A DNA stretch of 44,968 nucleotides from a virus, in the IMG/VR virus record IMGVR_UViG_3300005515_000635, positions 1 to 44,968 of that record; one strand, given 5' to 3'. The notes under the pieces were generated by a model that saw nothing but the letters and a program-made list of their open reading frames with translations, did not search any database and was not told the DNA's origin. A program made the translations under genes and the position numbers. Numbering within the stretch: the stretch's first letter is position 1; each line of letters starts with the position of its first letter. This document shows positions 15,853 through 43,973 of this stretch, piece after piece.

Positions 15853-16251
15853 CTACTTGCTCTGGGTGGCAAACTCGTTTCGAACGACGGTCGCCGACGA
15901 GTAGAAGCGGTTGTGGTCGTCTTTGTGGAAAACAGGTCCGACTACTTCGGGATCAGCCGTGCCATCAGCAACAAAGCGCGCGGCCAGCAGACGCATCTGC
16001 CACATTGAGACGTAATGGTCTTGAAAATTGATGGTGCAGTCTTCGCTGGCGCCCTTGTACCGGACGGTGTTCTCATTGACGGTCGCAATTTCCTGCATCA
16101 AGTCGATGGCTCGTCGGCGTAGGTTGACCGCCTGAACGTCGAGTGGGAGAGCGTCGTCTCGAGGGACGGCCATAACCACTTCAATCCGGTCGGTGCCAGA
16201 GATGCGTGGGTCAGCACCGCTGAACGGTCCTGCTGTGATCACTTGTTTCAC
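15853..16251 (-). CDS. Conserved-looking protein between MuF and scaffold, function unknown
   Basis: This 132-residue protein starts with GTG at 16251 (an internal GTG at 16240 is possible). Helices ([19 protein letters not shown]) are followed by a beta/aromatic C-terminal half ([18 protein letters not shown]). Its position in the head module suggests a minor capsid or accessory head protein, but I do not recognise a family. A plus-strand HNH gene separates it from the MuF gene. Confidence 0.65.
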
Positions 16252-16317
16252 TCCATTTCCCCGTTGCGGGTTACTTCTGCGCCGTTGCGGCTCAGGAAGA
16301 CAGAGGTGTCAACATTC

Positions 16318-16333
16318 GTGGCATAATTGCCAC
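16318..16333. promoter_or_regulatory. Inverted repeat abutting the HNH start codon
   Basis: GTGGCA-TAAT-TGCCAC is a perfect 6-bp inverted repeat ending one base before the ATG of the plus-strand HNH gene. It could be an operator for self-control, or a translation-blocking hairpin. No convincing -35 box is placed before it. Confidence 0.5.
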
Positions 16334-17014
16334 ATGACAGTAAGTGTGTGCACCGTGCCTGGCTGCGATCGCCCGCTACGCCTAAATGGCTTGTGCCATG
16401 CACACAATGAGCGGCTTCGGCGGTCGGGCAAGTTGTCTGAGCACTTGCCGATTAGGACGCGCTCCGAGATGCCTAAACGGTGCAGCACTGATGGATGCGG
16501 GTCGGCCGTCGCCAGCGGAGGTATGTGCCATCTTCATTACGAACGCGCGTTTCGCAACGGCTATAGGTCCAACGCTGCGGAGACGCCGATGTGTTCAGTA
16601 CCAGATTGCGGTAACCCTGTTCGATGCAAGTCGTACTGCACTAGTCACTACAACAAGTGGCGACGGTGGGGAACGCCTACGCCTGCACCTCGTCCAAAAC
16701 CCGCACACAAAAAGAGGGACCCAAGTGGTTATGTCATGGTCTGGCGCCCAGATTCGCCAATGGCGATGGCCAACGGCTTCGTTCCTGAACATCGTCTAGT
16801 GATGGCCGAGACAATCGGCAGGCCGCTTTGCAAGTTTGAGAACGTCCACCACATCAACGGTGTCCGCGACGACAATCGGCCCGAGAACCTGGAGTTATGG
16901 AACACGCATCAGCCAGCCGGTCAACGCGTACCAGATAAGGTCGCTTGGGCGGTCGATATCCTGTCGCTGTACGCACCTGACAAGTTGGTAGCACCTACTC
17001 TAGGTTTTCTTTAA
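16334..17014 (+). CDS. HNH homing endonuclease with three N-terminal zinc-finger repeats
   Basis: This is the only plus-strand gene in the structural module. From the ATG at 16334 it encodes 226 residues. Three tandem units of the form C-x4-C-x9-C-x2-H followed by a basic stretch lie at about 5-30, 48-72 and 84-108, and probably bind DNA. A linker then leads to an HNH_3-type nuclease ([27 protein letters not shown]). The frame upstream of 16334 is non-coding. Its 3' end overlaps the MuF gene tail by 20 bp, convergently. The opposite orientation and lone position fit a recently inserted free-standing homing endonuclease. Confidence 0.9.
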
Positions 17015-23543: not shown

Positions 23544-23578
23544 GGCAGGCTCCCGACGCTCGGGGGAATGAAACGACG

Positions 23579-23605
23579 AAAGCCCCGCACAACGGCGAGG
23601 CTTTT
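23579..23605. terminator. Bidirectional terminator closing the Ro60-RtcB operon
   Basis: AAAGCC-C-CGC pairs with GCG-A-GGCTTT around ACAAC, with TTTT on the plus strand and TTTC on the minus strand. It lies about 90 nt after the small HTH gene and before the next SD, so it ends the leftward cassette transcript. Confidence 0.65.
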
Positions 23606-23697
23606 CGGCTACCCGGATTTGGACACAGTTCGGGTATGTGAGGACCATTATGCCCTACCATTTGCCAAAGCAGCAAGAGCACTTGGCAGCGTGTCGC

Positions 23698-23913
23698 CTA
23701 AGACGTTGCCGTGCGCCCAGCGAGGATCTTCGCGATCAACTCCGGTGAACACCCCACGGCCTTGGCAAGTTTCGCGTGCGTCCAACTCTCACGGTCAGAC
23801 TGCCAGAGACCTCTGACAAGTTGGTCCCGTTGGGCACGGTGTTGCTCAGCGACCTGAGAAGCATCAGCCGCCAACCGGTGATGCTCTCGGGCCTGCTGTA
23901 CGCGCGAATCCAC
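23698..23913 (-). CDS. Small HTH DNA-binding protein of the Ro60-RtcB operon
   Basis: This 71-residue protein begins at GTG 23913, two bases after the rtcB stop. A charged N-terminal helix (QQAREHHRLAADASQVAEQHRAQRDQLVRGL) is followed by a helix-turn-helix, THAKLAKAVGCSPELIAKILAGRT, at about 45-68. It is the last gene before the terminator. It may regulate the palindromic promoter at 27095-27122. In many bacteria a different regulator (RtcR) plays that role, so this would be a phage substitute; that is inference. Confidence 0.75.
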   Translation of the reverse strand: MDSRVQQAREHHRLAADASQVAEQHRAQRDQLVRGLWQSDRESWTHAKLAKAVGCSPELIAKILAGRTATS

Positions 23914-23915
23914 CG

Positions 23916-25100
23916 TTAGGTGCCTTTCAGGTTGAGCACCTGTCGCAGCTCGTATTCGATGTCGACGAGATCCGCGGCATCAGCCATCACGACGTCGATG
24001 TCCTTGTAGGCGTCGGGGATCTCGTCGATCCACTCCGGTCCGGGCCGGTACTCAATGCCCTTCATGCGATCGGCTAGGTCGGCTTCGGTGTACCGCCTTT
24101 TGGCTTCAGTTCGGGAGAACCTGCGGCCAGCACCGTGGGGAGCTGAGCACAGCCCTGCTTGGTTGCCCTTGCCGCGCACAACATACGAGCGTGTGCCCAT
24201 AGACCCCGGGATGACAGCCCTCACACCTTCGTGGGCGTCCACGGCGCCCTTGCGGGTCAACCAAACGTCCTTCCCGAAGTGTTGTTCCTTGCGGGTGTAG
24301 TTGTGGTGGCAGTTGATGCGCTCTACCTCGATATCCGGATCGGAACCCATCCAATGAACCAGGGTTTGGCGGTAGCGGTCAATCATCTCGTTGCGGTTCT
24401 CGTAGGCGAACTTCTGCGCCCAGTTCAACTCTTTGAGGTAGTCGCCGAACTCAGGGATGCCGACCGGGAGGTACGCGAGGTCGATGTCGGGGAGTTGGAT
24501 GTGCCACTGCTTCATCAACTTCTGCGCAATCTTGATGTGCTTCTGCGCGATCTTGTTGCCCACACCGCGTGACCCGGAGTGCAGGAACATCCACACCCGG
24601 TCCTCGTTGTCCAAGCACAGTTCGATGAAGTGATTACCGCCGCCCAATGAGCCGAGCTGTTCCCGCCACTTCGGTGAATGGGTGAGGTCGATGTCGTTGT
24701 CGGCGGCCAACTTCTCGAGCATCGCGATGCGCTCGGTGGTGAAACCGTACCGCTGGAGGGACTTGTTGTAGTTCCCCGGAGATAGAGGGATGGCTGACTC
24801 AAGGGATTCACGGAGGTCGTGCAAGTCCTTGCCGTCGATGTCGGTGGCGGTGAATCGGGTGCGGGCGGCGACCATCCCACACCCGATGTCCACACCGACC
24901 GCAGCGGGAATCACCGCGTCCAGGGTGGGGATGACGGTGCCGACCGCTGAACCCTTCCCGGAGTGGGCGTCAGGCATCAACGCGATGTGCGGGTGGATGA
25001 ACGGCATGGACGCCGTCATCTTCGCTTGCTCGATTGCGTTGTCGTCGACCTGGGAGGCGAAGTTCAGCAGCTTGAACCCGTCGATGCGGTGGACGGTCAC
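23916..25100 (-). CDS. rtcB: RNA ligase RtcB
   Basis: This 394-residue RtcB-family protein joins 2',3'-cyclic or 3'-phosphate RNA ends to 5'-OH ends using GTP and Mn2+. All signature residues are present: DIGCGM with metal ligand C74, GGGNHFIE with H157, HSGSRGVG with H174, NCHHNY with H265/H266, and SAPHGAGRRFSR with H322, the residue that is guanylylated. PDAHSGKG (43-50) is also typical. The length is near the short bacterial class. The GTG start overlaps the ro60 stop (GTGA), so the two proteins are translationally coupled. It should repair tRNA or mRNA cut by ribonucleases and may act on RNA bound by Ro60. No rtcA is seen. Confidence 0.97.
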   Translation of the reverse strand: MTVHRIDGFKLLNFASQVDDNAIEQAKMTASMPFIHPHIALMPDAHSGKGSAVGTVIPTLDAVIPAAVGVDIGCGMVAARTRFTATDIDGKDLHDLRESLESAIPLSPGNYNKSLQRYGFTTERIAMLEKLAADNDIDLTHSPKWREQLGSLGGGNHFIELCLDNEDRVWMFLHSGSRGVGNKIAQKHIKIAQKLMKQWHIQLPDIDLAYLPVGIPEFGDYLKELNWAQKFAYENRNEMIDRYRQTLVHWMGSDPDIEVERINCHHNYTRKEQHFGKDVWLTRKGAVDAHEGVRAVIPGSMGTRSYVVRGKGNQAGLCSAPHGAGRRFSRTEAKRRYTEADLADRMKGIEYRPGPEWIDEIPDAYKDIDVVMADAADLVDIEYELRQVLNLKGT

Positions 25101-26719
25101 AGGTCACCTCGGGAGAAGTCAGCCAGCAGGTTGGGGACGACGGAGTCGAACCCGGATACGTCTAACTGGCCGGGGTCCGTGGGGTCGGCGATGGTGAAGT
25201 TCGTGGCGATCATCGCGACCACGACGAGGCGGGCGTCGATGCCCATCTTCTCCCGGTACTCCCGCAACGCTTGATGAGGATGGACCGGGCCGACCCATGT
25301 TTCGTTGTCGGTGTAGATGTGGAAGGTGTCGACCTCAACATTGTTCTGCATCGCCCACACCATCGGCAGACCGCAGTCGGTACGCCCCATGGGCAATTGG
25401 GAGGTGTAACGGCATACGTCGTCCAAGCGCCGGCGGGGACTGATATCCAACTCCGTCAAAGAGGTACCGGTGACACGCCATCCGTCGTTGGTGCCGGTGA
25501 AGCCGACAATGCGATGGTCAGGTTCCGTTGCGGCGGTGACCATCGCCAACGCCGCTGCTGCCTCGCGGCACGACAACGGCAGCCCCGACACCGCTGCGCT
25601 CATGGACCCGGAAATGTCCAAGGCCAGAAGGGTGCGCTTGTTGGCCGGTTCGATCGCACCGTAAGCGTTGTAGAACGCGGCATCCAACGCGTCGGTGACC
25701 ATCGACACCGGATGCCATGTGGACTCACCTCGAGAGGAGACCCCGGAGGCGTAGGTACGTTGCGCGACGAGGACATTGACCGGGTGAACACGACCGCGCT
25801 TCAACTGCTCCGCATCCTGCAACTGGGCGGCGACGGTCCGGCCTACATCGCCCTGGAGCACACCAAGACGGGTGAGGCGGGGTAGTTGCCGCATCAACGC
25901 TGTTTGGGGCATCCCATTGGCGATGAGAGCCCGCCACACGTCAGCATTGGTCAGTGCGTGGTCCGGCAGCATCTCCCACGTCAGCATCGGGTAATCACTG
26001 AGCGCGATCAGCACTTCGTCGGCGGTGCCTGCGTGCTGGACGGTTTCGAACCCATGCACGATGGGCGGTAGTTCTGAAGCCCATTCGGGGCGCTCATCGG
26101 GCAGTCCCCGGCAGATGTAGTCGAACAACGCACCCTTCGTCGAGGTGTCCGCGACAGGGTGAGAGAGGCGGAGGAGGTCGCGGTGCGTCCACCCATCGCG
26201 CTGCCGGTACTTCAACGCTTGGTAGGCCAGTTTGTCGGCGGGCTTGTCGGAGTACCACGACCCAACAGCCTTTCGAAGGCCGCGACCCCAACCGCGGAAC
26301 TGCTCGACGTACCCGGCGAACAGGAACAAATGCGTTCCGGTGCGGGCAACCTGAGGTAGTGCGGCGAGTGCTGCGGCTCGGCCAGCATCGTCGTCCGACG
26401 CGGCGGCGATGGCCAGCGCGAACAGGGCGGGGTTGTTCTTCGGCGCACGGCCCGCTGCGGACACTTCCACGACGTGCCGGACAAGTTCGACGGGATCGTT
26501 TGCGGCGGCCCGAAACACGACTTCGGCGTTGTCGCGGGTCATGTCCTTGGCGCTGGCGTAATACGTTCCACCGTCGGTTCCCAAGGTGAGGAAGCGGTGG
26601 AGACGAGCCTTGTCGTCAACGGTGAATGTGTATCCGCCGGCGGTGTTCTTCACCTGCCGTGGGTCGGCCTTGTCGGACTGAGCGGTGCGGCGGGTGTTGA
26701 TGGTGCTGAGAACGTCCAC
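25097..26719 (-). CDS. rsr: Ro60/Rsr RNA-binding protein (TROVE and vWA domains)
   Basis: This 540-residue protein starts at GTG 26719 with AGGAG five bases upstream. The N-terminus (NTRRTAQSDKAD, NTAGGYTFTVDDKARLHRFLTLG) and HEAT-like helices to about 330 match the TROVE ring that binds misfolded RNA ends inside and Y RNA outside. A von Willebrand A domain follows, with the MIDAS motif DISGSMS (368-374) and RTD (446-448). Length equals bacterial Rsr. The three Y-like RNAs immediately upstream and rtcB downstream mirror host rsr-Y RNA-rtcB loci. The likely role is RNA quality control or guided decay during infection. Confidence 0.97.
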   Translation of the reverse strand: MDVLSTINTRRTAQSDKADPRQVKNTAGGYTFTVDDKARLHRFLTLGTDGGTYYASAKDMTRDNAEVVFRAAANDPVELVRHVVEVSAAGRAPKNNPALFALAIAAASDDDAGRAAALAALPQVARTGTHLFLFAGYVEQFRGWGRGLRKAVGSWYSDKPADKLAYQALKYRQRDGWTHRDLLRLSHPVADTSTKGALFDYICRGLPDERPEWASELPPIVHGFETVQHAGTADEVLIALSDYPMLTWEMLPDHALTNADVWRALIANGMPQTALMRQLPRLTRLGVLQGDVGRTVAAQLQDAEQLKRGRVHPVNVLVAQRTYASGVSSRGESTWHPVSMVTDALDAAFYNAYGAIEPANKRTLLALDISGSMSAAVSGLPLSCREAAAALAMVTAATEPDHRIVGFTGTNDGWRVTGTSLTELDISPRRRLDDVCRYTSQLPMGRTDCGLPMVWAMQNNVEVDTFHIYTDNETWVGPVHPHQALREYREKMGIDARLVVVAMIATNFTIADPTDPGQLDVSGFDSVVPNLLADFSRGDL

Positions 26720-26730
26720 TTCGACTCCTG

Positions 26731-26881
26731 CAGCGGCGATGTGGGCGTGTAGTGCTGACCGGGTTTACGTGCTCTAACCAAACTGAGCTACCGCCGAGCA
26801 TTCGCCCGGCGGACGGGATTTGAACCCGCGACCCCGCCATCCAAGAGGTAACCGATCATGCTCCGGCCCACATCGCCACTG
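26731..26881 (-). ncRNA. Y RNA 1 with circularly permuted tRNA-like module
   Basis: The 5' and 3' ends pair in a continuous 16-bp stem (core GCGATGTGGGC at 26866-26876 with GCCCACATCGC at 26736-26746, extended by five pairs including one G-U). Inside, GGGCCGG, TCGGTTA and a 3' CCGG-N12-GCCC are shared with the next two RNAs. The apex is a permuted tRNA: T-arm (26813-26829, loop TTCAAAT), a 9-bp acceptor stem closed by GAAT (26791-26812), then a D-arm TAGCTCAG..GGTTAGAGC (26770-26790). The Y stem takes the place of the anticodon arm. This is the known design of bacterial Y RNAs such as YrlA. The 3' end is next to the ro60 SD. Confidence 0.88.
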
Positions 26882-26896
26882 TTCAGTTGTTTCATT

Positions 26897-27010
26897 AAGC
26901 GGTGCGGGCATGTGATTGCAACCGGAGTACAACCCGTGATTGCTCACCGGCGGCGGGGTTTGAACCCGCTTATTCCAAAGTTAACCGACTGCGGCCGGCC
27001 CACATCGCTC
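26897..27010 (-). ncRNA. Y RNA 2 with tRNA-like module
   Basis: About 114 nt. The terminal stem pairs 26998-27010 with 26897-26909 (13 pairs, one A-C mismatch, G-U pairs) and differs from RNA 1 with partly compensating changes. It has GGGCCGG, AGTCGGTTA and CCGG-N12-GCCC in the same places. The apex holds a perfect T-arm (26953-26969, GCGGG/CCCGC, loop TTCAAAC) and an acceptor-like hairpin capped by a GCAA tetraloop (26932-26951). A degenerate D-like arm keeps GG. It is separated from RNA 1 by an AT-rich 15-nt spacer, a likely cleavage site. Confidence 0.82.
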
Positions 27011-27022
27011 TATGAAATTTAG

Positions 27023-27086
27023 GGGACGGGCATGGCGTTGTCTGCCGGGTAACTTAGCGGGTAACCGACTGACTCCGGCCCGTCCC
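27023..27086 (-). ncRNA. Y RNA 3, minimal form without tRNA-like module
   Basis: 64 nt. GGGACGGGC (27078-27086) pairs perfectly with GCCCGTCCC (27023-27031). It carries GGGCCGG, AGTCGGTTA and, on the 3' side, CCGG-N13-GCCC as in RNAs 1 and 2, but has only a short apical region with a GTTACCCG direct repeat. It is first in the transcript; its 5' end lies about 8 nt after the predicted -10 box. The 12-nt AT-rich spacer to RNA 2 could be an RNase site. Confidence 0.75.
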
Positions 27087-27094
27087 TGCTCACT

Positions 27095-27122
27095 ACTGTA
27101 CGGCAGTACAGCCTGATGGCAA
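27095..27122 (-). promoter_or_regulatory. Promoter of the Y RNA-ro60-rtcB transcript
   Basis: TTGCCA (27117-27122) and TACAGT (27095-27100) are 16 bp apart, near-consensus for the host main sigma factor. The start would fall at about 27087, exactly where the first Y RNA stem begins. The gene at 27148 ends upstream, so this is an independent promoter inside the leftward gene stream. Confidence 0.65.
27096..27111. promoter_or_regulatory. Palindromic operator candidate over the Y RNA promoter
   Basis: CTGTAC-GGCA-GTACAG is a perfect 6-bp inverted repeat covering the -10 box and half the spacer. A bound dimer would block the promoter. The small HTH protein at 23698-23913 or the phage repressor are candidate binders. 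Confidence 0.55.
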
Positions 27123-41761: not shown

Positions 41762-42066
41762 TCGCCCTCCCTAGGCCAGTCGATTCGCGTGGACCGTTCG
41801 ACAATCGCCGTGGCCCCGAAAGACTCGATGAGGTCGGCACGCTTCTTGGCAGTCGACCGTGAGCCGTACACCTGATTCGTTACGGGCCATACGAATTCAT
41901 CGGTGCCCATGATTCGGGTGTAGTCACCGACCGGACGCCAAGCTGGAGGACGCCAACCGGGGACGGGCTCTGACCATTCCTCGCCGCCGTAATCGACGAC
42001 TTCATGAGACCCCTCGGGGAATGAAGTGACTCGCACCCGGTAGAGGTAGCTTCCCGAGAACTTCAC
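41758..42066 (-). CDS. Early protein, function unknown
   Basis: 102 residues, GTG start. Trp/Pro-rich (GGEEWSEPVPGWRPPAWRPV) with a basic helix (SRSTAKKRADLIESFGA). The end pattern resembles small phage proteins with no known role. Confidence 0.6.
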   Translation of the reverse strand: MKFSGSYLYRVRVTSFPEGSHEVVDYGGEEWSEPVPGWRPPAWRPVGDYTRIMGTDEFVWPVTNQVYGSRSTAKKRADLIESFGATAIVERSTRIDWPREGE

Positions 42067-42926
42067 GATGCGTCACCCCGACCCAGCTCCCGAGGCAGCC
42101 TGAGGGTGCCGTTGTCGGCGACGTACTGAGTGATGCGCTTCCACGCGAAGTCCTGGCCGAGCGGGGTGAGCTTCCCGACTGCGTAGGCGTGTCCGTTCTT
42201 CTTGCTGACGCCCTTGTCTGTGTAGGCAAGTCCGCGGCGGATCGCTTCGGCGGTGGCGTGCCCGGTGTCGGAGCGCTCGCCCTTGATGAACAACCCGATG
42301 TGGCCGAGGAAGCGCATCACCTCTTCTTGGAGGATGGTGATGTTCTGCTTCTTCCCCCACGTCTTCACCTCGCGGGAAAACTCCTGACGATGGATTGCGG
42401 TGTCGGACACGGTGTGCGCTTCGGCCTTCGCGACCATCGGCGCGTCACGCTCGATAGCAGCGACCAGGGTTCGGTTTTCGACGGTGAGTTCTTTCACCTT
42501 GCTGTCAAGGATGTGGAGCGCACGGTGAACGATCTGGTCCTCGGTCAACTCGACGACAGGCGGTGCAACTTCTGCTTCGCGAGCCTTGACTGCGAAGTAA
42601 GCCTGAGCCTCGGCCACCCGAGGCAAGTTGGGGTCACCATTCATGACGGTCAGATAGGCGCCGAACCGAGAGAGTTCGTGGTCGGATCGTGGTCGACCCC
42701 CGCCAGAGGGTTTTTCGGTGATCGCCGAAAAACTGCGGGGGACGTCGTGACCGCTGTTTTGGGCCGACGCGATGGCGCGGTCCACGATTTTCGCGAAGTC
42801 TTCCCACCGGGCGTAGGCGGTAGCCACCTGAAGATCGCGTGCCGTCCAGTATTCGGACCCGTCTTCCCTCACCCGCCTAATGGCGTCGAACGGAGACTGC
42901 TCCCCGGTAGGCTGTAGTTCTGACAC
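42063..42926 (-). CDS. Antirepressor-like protein (DinD/BRO N-domain, KilAC-like C-domain)
   Basis: 287 residues. SPFDAIRRVREDGSEYWTARDLQ, YARWEDFAKIVDRAI and RSDHELSRFGAYLTVMNGD are typical of DinD/P63C-type N-domains. DAPMVAKAEAH..VKTWGKKQNITILQEEVMRFLGHIGLF matches phage antirepressor C-domains. It likely inactivates the repressor during induction. It follows the Cro-like gene and a terminator hairpin. Confidence 0.85.
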   Translation of the reverse strand: MSELQPTGEQSPFDAIRRVREDGSEYWTARDLQVATAYARWEDFAKIVDRAIASAQNSGHDVPRSFSAITEKPSGGGRPRSDHELSRFGAYLTVMNGDPNLPRVAEAQAYFAVKAREAEVAPPVVELTEDQIVHRALHILDSKVKELTVENRTLVAAIERDAPMVAKAEAHTVSDTAIHRQEFSREVKTWGKKQNITILQEEVMRFLGHIGLFIKGERSDTGHATAEAIRRGLAYTDKGVSKKNGHAYAVGKLTPLGQDFAWKRITQYVADNGTLRLPRELGRGDAS

Positions 42927-43448: not shown

Positions 43449-43496
43449 TAGTTGACGAGTTTTCGAACATCCGCGTCAACGGGGAGGGTGACACCC

Positions 43497-43973
43497 GTGA
43501 GCGACCTACCACCAGAACAATGGCGGTCCCTGTTCGACAAGGTTAACGTCGAGTTCGGGTACCGGCCGCTCGCCACGCGTATCGGCATGGACCACACCCG
43601 TCTACGTCGCCTCCTGCTAGGGGGTGGCACGACAGCGGAAGCCATCAGTTTGGTGGCTGACGCGTTTGGCGTGAGGCCAGACGAGATACGAGCGTTGCGT
43701 GGCGAGCAAGCAATGGTGTGGGAGCCGTTCACCCTCCCCGACGAAGCGGGGCGGCTCAACCACGATGAACGCGAGGTAGTCCGCAGTGTTATCAACGCCA
43801 TTCTCAAAGCCCGTGATGATTCGGCCGCGAAATCGGATGCATCGGGCGAAGCGGGCAAAGTCGAGAAGACCGACGACTCAGGTGACGACGCGGAGTCGTT
43901 GTCCAGGCTCCGGTCCGCATTGCATGGAGTGGCCGTGGAAGAGCCCCAGAAGCGCAACGATGAAGGGGCCTGA
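43497..43973 (+). CDS. Immunity-repressor-like HTH protein
   Basis: Start at GTG 43497 (GGGGAGG upstream), 158 residues. FGYRPLATRIGMDHTRLRRLLLGGGTTAEAISLVADAFGV is a XRE-type HTH; an acidic/basic helical region and a Ser/Asp/Lys-rich tail follow. Plus strand, divergent from the Cro-like gene, followed by a membrane protein gene. This is the usual place of an actinophage immunity repressor. Confidence 0.72.
   Translation: MSDLPPEQWRSLFDKVNVEFGYRPLATRIGMDHTRLRRLLLGGGTTAEAISLVADAFGVRPDEIRALRGEQAMVWEPFTLPDEAGRLNHDEREVVRSVINAILKARDDSAAKSDASGEAGKVEKTDDSGDDAESLSRLRSALHGVAVEEPQKRNDEGA

What the first reader, a model, noticed from the sequence alone, without database searches (positions are those of the whole stretch)
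23579..27122. Self-contained phage cassette: promoter, three Y-like RNAs, Ro60, RtcB, HTH, terminator
All parts of an RNA quality-control and repair device sit on one predicted transcript. TROVE and RtcB signature residues are intact, the genes are coupled by GTGA, and structured RNAs with Y RNA layout lie directly upstream. Host rsr-Y RNA-rtcBA loci are known, and I recall Ro60 genes in some mycobacteriophages. A unit with three RNAs, its own operator-like promoter, a small HTH gene and no rtcA may be new. My inference is that it repairs or redirects RNA cut by host toxins or anticodon nucleases during infection.
Basis: partly seen in the sequence, partly recalled or inferred. Interest (0 to 1): 0.93.

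Follow-up and report, generated by a model that had tools for sequence, protein, structure and literature searches.

The report
Phage Ro60–RtcB operon with own regulator
An unnamed actinobacterial phage carries, on one predicted transcript, three tRNA-mimicking small RNAs, their Ro60 binding protein, an RNA-sealing enzyme and a small DNA-binding protein that appears to switch the whole unit off; the sealing enzyme's place in this unit was found in no other phage searched, and the small regulator proves to be a widespread, apparently undescribed partner of Ro60.

Summary
Covariance models built without the window's RNAs find exactly three sites in the 45-kb window, all upstream of Ro60 (E = 1.6e-22, 6.4e-10 and 1.2e-7). 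Ro60 (TROVE + vWA), RtcB, a 71-aa HTH protein and a terminator-like hairpin follow on the same strand.
(1) The HTH gene is a dedicated Ro60 partner in actinobacterial phages and hosts: all 17 profile hits in genomes surveyed lie beside Ro60. It co-occurs with a palindrome, TGTA-N6-TACA, set between -35 and -10 of the RNA promoter (42 of 59 loci with HTH, 3 of 66 without; 7 of 8 and 2 of 32 in a held-out set). Operator bases covary with recognition-helix residue 62. It is very probably the operon's autoregulator. (2) RtcB beside Ro60 was seen in no other virus examined: none of 50,697 phage records, about 100 distinct viral Ro60 loci or 80 viral RtcB loci. RtcB sits precisely between Ro60 and the HTH gene.
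Phage Ro60/Y RNAs and host rsr–Y RNA–rtcBA operons are known, and Y-RNA arrays prove common in the loci compared, so this is a new variant. Repair of RNA cut by host nucleases remains inference.

The parts
27117..27122 (-). -35-like hexamer TTGCCA
   Evidence: TTG lies 16-18 nt before the palindrome's TACA in 30 of 51 related sites vs 2.9% at random positions
27097..27110 (.). Operator: palindrome TGTAC-TGCC-GTACA; its promoter-distal half overlaps the -10
   Evidence: TGTA-N6-TACA upstream of Ro60 in 42/59 HTH+ loci, 3/66 HTH- loci; 4 hits in 1.33 Mb elsewhere; held-out 7/8 vs 2/32
27095..27100 (-). -10-like hexamer TACAGT
   Evidence: TACA[GC]T in 38 of 51 related sites
27022..27087 (-). Y-like RNA A, short class (Ro-binding stem, no tRNA-like module); begins about 8 nt after the -10, i.e. 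near the expected transcription start
   Evidence: model R1 47.3 bits, E=1.2e-7; fold z -3.2; also resembles nematode sbRNA RF01656, 31 bits, below gathering score
26900..27007 (-). Y-like RNA B, intermediate class (T-arm-like hairpin kept, D-arm degenerate)
   Evidence: model R2 48.1 bits, E=6.4e-10; R1 36.2 bits
26737..26875 (-). Y-like RNA C, YrlA-like with tRNA-like module (T arm, acceptor-like stem, D arm GTAGCTCAGTTTGGTTAGAGC)
   Evidence: model R2 100.5 bits, E=1.6e-22; Rfam YrlA RF02553 38.7 bits, E=5e-7, below gathering score 69; fold z -2.65
25097..26719 (-). Ro60/Rsr gene, 540 aa (TROVE + vWA; the MIDAS-type residues D368, S370, S372, T447, D471 are invariant across phage relatives)
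23916..25100 (-). RtcB RNA ligase gene, 394 aa, overlapping Ro60 by GTGA
23698..23913 (-). 71-aa HTH protein: long N-terminal helix 3-39, then HTH helices 46-53 and 57-69; specificity residue K62
   Evidence: weak HTH_31; AlphaFold2 pLDDT 90.5; family alignment; covariation
23577..23607 (-). Terminator-like hairpin after the HTH gene
   Evidence: -17.0 kcal/mol, z -3.6; no strong T-run

Best explanation
This is a self-regulated phage RNP operon. From one promoter RNA polymerase makes a transcript beginning with three Y-like RNAs, followed by Ro60, RtcB and the HTH protein. The HTH protein binds the palindrome lying between -35 and -10 and represses its own operon (autoregulation; strongly supported by comparison, not shown at the bench). 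The Y RNAs are probably cut out of the transcript and bind Ro60 through their closing stem (inferred from known Ro60/YrlA biology); the tRNA-like one may dock tRNA enzymes or a nuclease such as PNPase. RtcB, taken up between Ro60 and the HTH gene, seals RNA ends of the 2',3'-cyclic-phosphate/5'-OH type, so the unit probably sorts damaged structured RNA (tRNA or rRNA) between repair and decay, during lytic growth or lysogeny (inferred).
For: Three RNAs found by models built from other loci; paired columns covary (97.6% of cells paired vs 80.4% shuffled; 70 cells with double changes vs 19.5; sliding the partners destroys it). The HTH profile hits 15 of 27 Ro60-bearing actinobacterial genomes, once each, always beside Ro60; in 149 genomes of one order it hits 3, all with an adjacent TROVE gene. 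Operator tracks the HTH gene, also in held-out loci, and sits in the promoter. Recognition-helix residue 62 covaries with operator base 5: K with C, A with A, L or Q mostly with G. All T[AG]TAC-N4-GTA[TC]A sites lie upstream of Ro60 in loci whose HTH has K62, 0 in 1.25 Mb elsewhere; M. abscessus prophages with helix LIQKI use CTATAC-CGCG-GTATAG at the same place. Ro60-RtcB overlap and the 2-nt RtcB-HTH gap. Host precedent for Ro60-Y RNA-RtcB operons and tRNA repair: PMC7790460.
Against: No expression, processing, binding or phenotype data. A repressor rather than an activator is inferred from operator overlap with the -10. Recognition-residue covariation is partly confounded by phylogeny (8 operator-class changes on the Ro60 tree), and other HTH columns score nearly as high. 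17 of 59 HTH+ loci lacked the exact palindrome within 1.1 kb (many explained by the variant site). The window is a single metagenomic viral record with no near relative among known phages, so RtcB-in-Ro60-operon rests on one case. The RtcB substrate in this phage is unknown.
Confidence: 0.6

Rival explanations
1. RNA decay or remodelling rather than repair: Ro60 and Y RNAs retarget host PNPase or other nucleases to structured host RNA, as Rsr does in Deinococcus; RtcB merely rides in the operon with a separate job.
For: Rsr-Y RNA-PNPase function in Deinococcus (described in PMC7790460 and PMC8394870); every other phage Ro60 operon examined works without RtcB; nearest relatives of Ro60 (Sparky) and of RtcB (L150; M. 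abscessus prophages) differ.
Against: RtcB is inserted in tight register between Ro60 and its regulator, and Ro60-RtcB linkage also occurs in proteobacterial replicons and Salmonella (PMC7790460).
Confidence: 0.27
2. A lysogeny cargo (moron) cassette: the operon is kept off by the HTH protein in the prophage and induced by stress, benefiting the lysogen rather than infection.
For: Closest operons lie in temperate phages and prophages (Sparky with integrase, M. abscessus prophages); the window encodes a repressor-like and an antirepressor-like protein; the same HTH-operator-Ro60 unit exists on host chromosomes.
Against: No integrase was identified in this window (not exhaustively searched); cluster C and Streptomyces phages with large genomes also carry Ro60.
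Confidence: 0.25
3. Chance neighbourhood: RtcB was inserted downstream of Ro60 by random phage mosaicism and there is no functional link.
For: A single example; RtcB occurs in 642 phage records without adjacent Ro60.
Against: GTGA overlap, preserved close spacing of the HTH gene after RtcB, and Ro60-RtcB linkage in bacteria (PMC7790460).
Confidence: 0.25
4. The three RNA elements are decayed tRNA genes rather than Y RNAs.
For: T-arm-like sequences; Sparky has tRNA genes just upstream.
Against: No tRNA found; covarying closing stem absent from tRNA; conserved position before Ro60 in phage and host loci.
Confidence: 0.03

Closest known systems
Salmonella rsr-yrlBA-rtcBA RNA repair operon (PMC7790460)
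   Same: Ro60, Y RNAs and RtcB in one operon; a tRNA-like Y RNA
   Different: Host chromosome; includes rtcA; controlled by RtcR; gene order rsr then Y RNAs. Here: phage, no rtcA found, RNAs lead the transcript, small HTH with palindromic operator
Mycobacteriophage Sparky Ro60 locus (KM083128, genes 36-37)
   Same: Nearly the same operator (CTGTACTGCGGTACAG), Y-like RNAs, Ro60 72% identical, HTH 71% identical next to Ro60
   Different: Two Y-like RNAs, tRNAs nearby, a small ORF before Ro60, and no RtcB in the genome
M. abscessus prophage prophiGD43A-5 Ro60 locus
   Same: RNA array, Ro60, HTH in the same order
   Different: Six RNAs, altered operator CTATAC-N4-GTATAG with altered recognition helix, no RtcB
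YrlA (Rfam RF02553)
   Same: RNA C has the tRNA-like module and closing stem
   Different: 38.7 bits, below the gathering score of 69; Rfam at its cut-off reports no Y RNA in 10 related loci either
Phage RtcB of M. abscessus prophages (phiGD17-1 gp68)
   Same: RtcB 71% identical
   Different: Stands among replication genes, not near Ro60

Membership tests
Ro60/Rsr | TROVE domain followed by vWA domain | tested here: met
   full-length match to Rsr 2nvo
Ro60/Rsr | Score over the NCBIfam Rsr equivalog cut-off (900 bits) | tested here: not met
   522 bits: member of the wider family, not shown to be the same equivalog
Ro60/Rsr | Binds Y RNA | not testable with these tools
   needs co-purification
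Bacterial Y RNA | Encoded beside ro60, with a covarying closing stem | tested here: met
   conserved GGCCGG..UCGGUUA motif
YrlA (RF02553) | Rfam gathering score | tested here: not met
   38.7 vs 69 bits; RNAs A and B do not match it
YrlA-like (tRNA mimic) | T arm, D arm and acceptor-like stem inside the closing stem | tested here: met
   RNA C only; RNA B partly, RNA A no
RtcB ligase | Full-length domain with metal/GMP-site motifs (DIGCGM, GGGNH, HSGSRG, HHN, SAPHGAGR) | tested here: met
   assignment of motifs to the active site is from general knowledge
rsr-Y RNA-rtcBA repair operon | RtcA present | tested here: not met
   (record may be a fragment)
rsr-Y RNA-rtcBA repair operon | Control by RtcR | not tested
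   a sigma70-like promoter with operator is found instead; no search for RtcR was run
Known HTH repressor families | Pfam/NCBIfam match over cut-off | tested here: not met
   HTH_31 21.9 bits vs cut-off 27; no NCBIfam, no PHROG; no PDB fold match with E<0.001

The most novel reading that the evidence does not exclude
Ro60 and Y-RNA arrays of actinobacteria and their phages are governed by an undescribed family of small dedicated HTH repressors with their own evolving operator code, and this phage has put an RNA ligase under that switch, making a compact, inducible counter-defence device that senses and repairs nuclease-cut RNA.
Probability: 0.3. Interest if true: 0.82.

Novelty: new variant of a known kind. 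Interest (0 to 1): 0.63.

Why it matters
Why phages carry Ro60 is an open question. A phage that couples Ro60 and Y RNAs to a ligase suggests a repair role that can be tested by plating on hosts with anticodon nucleases. The HTH-operator code gives a handle on when these RNPs are made in actinobacteria and their phages, where a different kind of control from the RtcR system of Salmonella seems to be at work. The covariance models also find actinobacterial Y-like RNAs that Rfam's YrlA model does not report at its cut-off.

Tried and rejected
Rfam at gathering score: no match in the window. ARAGORN: no tRNA, so decayed tRNAs disfavoured. Megablast of the first 24 kb against phages: no match, so no empty-site comparison could be made. 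Search for a second phage Ro60-RtcB unit: alignment-based scans of viral contigs with RtcB (80 loci kept of 590) and Ro60 (80 kept of 230), and a chimeric Ro60+RtcB query against phages: none; the same chimeric query does find linked pairs in Methylosinus, Xanthomonas and Novosphingobium replicons, so the method works. Contig L150 (RtcB 78% identical) holds two palindromes but no Ro60 or good Y RNA. PADLOC: none of the three proteins matches a known defence system. Foldseek of the HTH model against PDB: only E>0.5. Four alignment or structure requests failed on coordinates or tool rules. Three papers were not held (meant to be Burroughs and Aravind 2016, Sim 2020 and Chen 2014), so a published report of phage Ro60-RtcB or of this HTH family cannot be excluded.

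Full report
Observation. The window is a 44,968-base IMG/VR virus record, with tail, head, portal and terminase genes on the minus strand and no megablast relative of its first 24 kb among 50,697 phage records. The cassette reads on the minus strand: promoter 27122-27095, three structured RNAs 27087-26737, Ro60 26719-25097, RtcB 25100-23916, a 71-aa HTH protein 23913-23698, hairpin 23607-23577. Pfam identifies TROVE plus vWA_Ro60 and full-length RtcB. Ro60 and RtcB overlap by GTGA, and the HTH gene begins two bases after the RtcB stop.

The RNAs. Rfam at its own cut-offs finds nothing; at E<=10, RNA C matches YrlA at 38.7 bits and RNA A a nematode small RNA family at 31 bits, both below cut-off. 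From general knowledge that nematode family belongs to the stem-bulge RNAs, which are described as homologous to Y RNAs (abstract of PMC4726728). I therefore took RNAs upstream of Ro60 in other loci, aligned a tRNA-like class (16 sequences) and a short class (10 sequences), without the window's own, and built models R2 and R1. Searching the whole window, they hit exactly the three sites (R2: 100.5, 48.1, 35.3 bits; R1: 47.3, 36.2, 19.6 bits). In the tRNA-like alignment 97.6% of pair cells are standard against 80.4% after shuffling, and 15 of 26 pairs show double changes. Related loci carry one to six such RNAs, nearly all directly upstream of Ro60. Thus a three-RNA block is typical, not exceptional. 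Inside the window the three differ: C is a full tRNA mimic, B keeps the T-arm hairpin, A is a bare Ro-binding stem-loop.

The HTH gene and its operator. A homologue of the 71-aa protein lies downstream of Ro60 in 59 of 125 loci with enough upstream sequence, in phages, prophages and chromosomes of Cellulomonas, Nocardioides, Micropruina, Actinomyces and others. In 27 Ro60-bearing genomes its profile finds 15 hits, one per genome, each beside Ro60; in 149 genomes of one order, three hits, all beside TROVE genes; one of these genomes is common to both sets, so 17 distinct hits. The palindrome TGTA-N6-TACA occurs upstream of Ro60 in 42 of 59 loci with the HTH gene and 3 of 66 without; in two of those three (L089, L112) the contig ends right after Ro60, so the gene could not be seen. 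Elsewhere in the same DNA it occurs 4 times in 1.33 Mb. In loci fetched later and not used for the discovery, the counts are 7 of 8 and 2 of 32. The palindrome lies between -35 and -10: TTG stands 16-18 bases before its TACA in 30 of 51 cases against 2.9% at random. In the window the -10 ends 8 bases before RNA A, and in several relatives (for example L140, L061, L139, L023, L081, L116, L009) the first RNA begins 8-9 bases after it (worked out).

Specificity covariation. The AlphaFold2 model has a long N-terminal helix and an HTH whose second helix is 57-69. Residue 62 tracks operator base 5: K with C (window, Sparky, L004, L006, and L005 on one side), A with A (mostly), L with G, Q mostly with G. 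Of all aligned columns it has the highest mutual information with base 5, though two others come close, as shared ancestry would produce. On the Ro60 tree the operator class changes eight times, so the association does not rest on one split. M. abscessus prophages, whose helix reads LIQKI, lack TGTA-N6-TACA but have CTATAC-CGCG-GTATAG at the same place; the pattern T[AG]TAC-N4-GTA[TC]A occurs only upstream of Ro60 in loci with K62 and never in 1.25 Mb elsewhere. This is good comparative evidence that the HTH protein binds the palindrome. Repression is inferred from overlap with the -10.

RtcB. None of 48 Ro60-bearing viral records has any RtcB. A chimeric Ro60+RtcB query finds 977 phage records with one or the other but none with the two adjacent; the arithmetic implies about six records holding both apart. 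The same query finds linked pairs in proteobacterial replicons. Viral scans with Ro60 (about 100 distinct loci) and RtcB (80 loci) give no second case. In 27 actinobacterial Ro60 genomes RtcB is present in 13, never near Ro60. The nearest relatives of the two genes differ (Ro60: Sparky 72%; RtcB: contig L150 78%, M. abscessus prophages 71%), so RtcB was probably acquired separately and placed between Ro60 and the regulator.

How it works. Shown by sequence: unit architecture, structured RNAs with covarying stems, intact-looking Ro60 and RtcB, a regulator-operator pair conserved across loci. Inferred: autorepression; release of the RNAs from the 5' part of the transcript; Ro60 binding; the role of RtcB in sealing cut RNA. 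In Salmonella the rsr-yrlBA-rtcBA operon responds to tRNA halves with cyclic phosphate ends (PMC7790460), and a jumbo-phage survey describes RtcB and TROVE proteins as phage RNA-repair parts without mentioning a joint operon in the passages read (PMC7824862). By analogy this phage unit most likely handles RNA cut by host nucleases, but decay remodelling with PNPase or a lysogen benefit remain open.

Prior knowledge. Y RNAs in mycobacteriophages were reported by Chen et al. 2014, as cited in PMC12282133; I could not read that paper here. Searches of the held library found no paper naming Ro-like and RtcB together in phage nor a TROVE-domain/HTH pair; subscription papers are not covered. I therefore rate it a new variant of a known kind.

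Noticed in passing
L010, L026, L138 upstream of Ro60: M. abscessus prophages carry arrays of six Y-like RNAs before Ro60, with a variant operator CTATAC-CGCG-GTATAG matched by an altered recognition helix.
   Followed up: partly
   Followed up: partly
window 27022-27087: The shortest RNA resembles a nematode small RNA family (RF01656, 31.3 bits vs cut-off 38), thought to be of the Y-RNA-related stem-bulge kind: the Ro-binding stem looks similar across domains of life.
   Followed up: no
window 16193-17014 (+): A plus-strand ORF with CxxC/H repeats and an HNH-like motif sits among minus-strand head genes, possibly a homing endonuclease.
   Followed up: no
window 42063-42926 (-) and 43452-43973 (+): Antirepressor-like and transcriptional-repressor-like genes suggest a temperate or formerly temperate phage; no integrase was identified.
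   Followed up: partly
Mycobacterium phage Iota genes 228/229 (H62): Ro60 appears split into two annotated ORFs, suggesting loss or a frameshift.
   Followed up: no
L067, L019: Large metagenomic phages with divergent HTH genes and several Y-like RNA motif hits before Ro60; L019 has a mixed operator TGTAC/TATAC with K62.
   Followed up: partly
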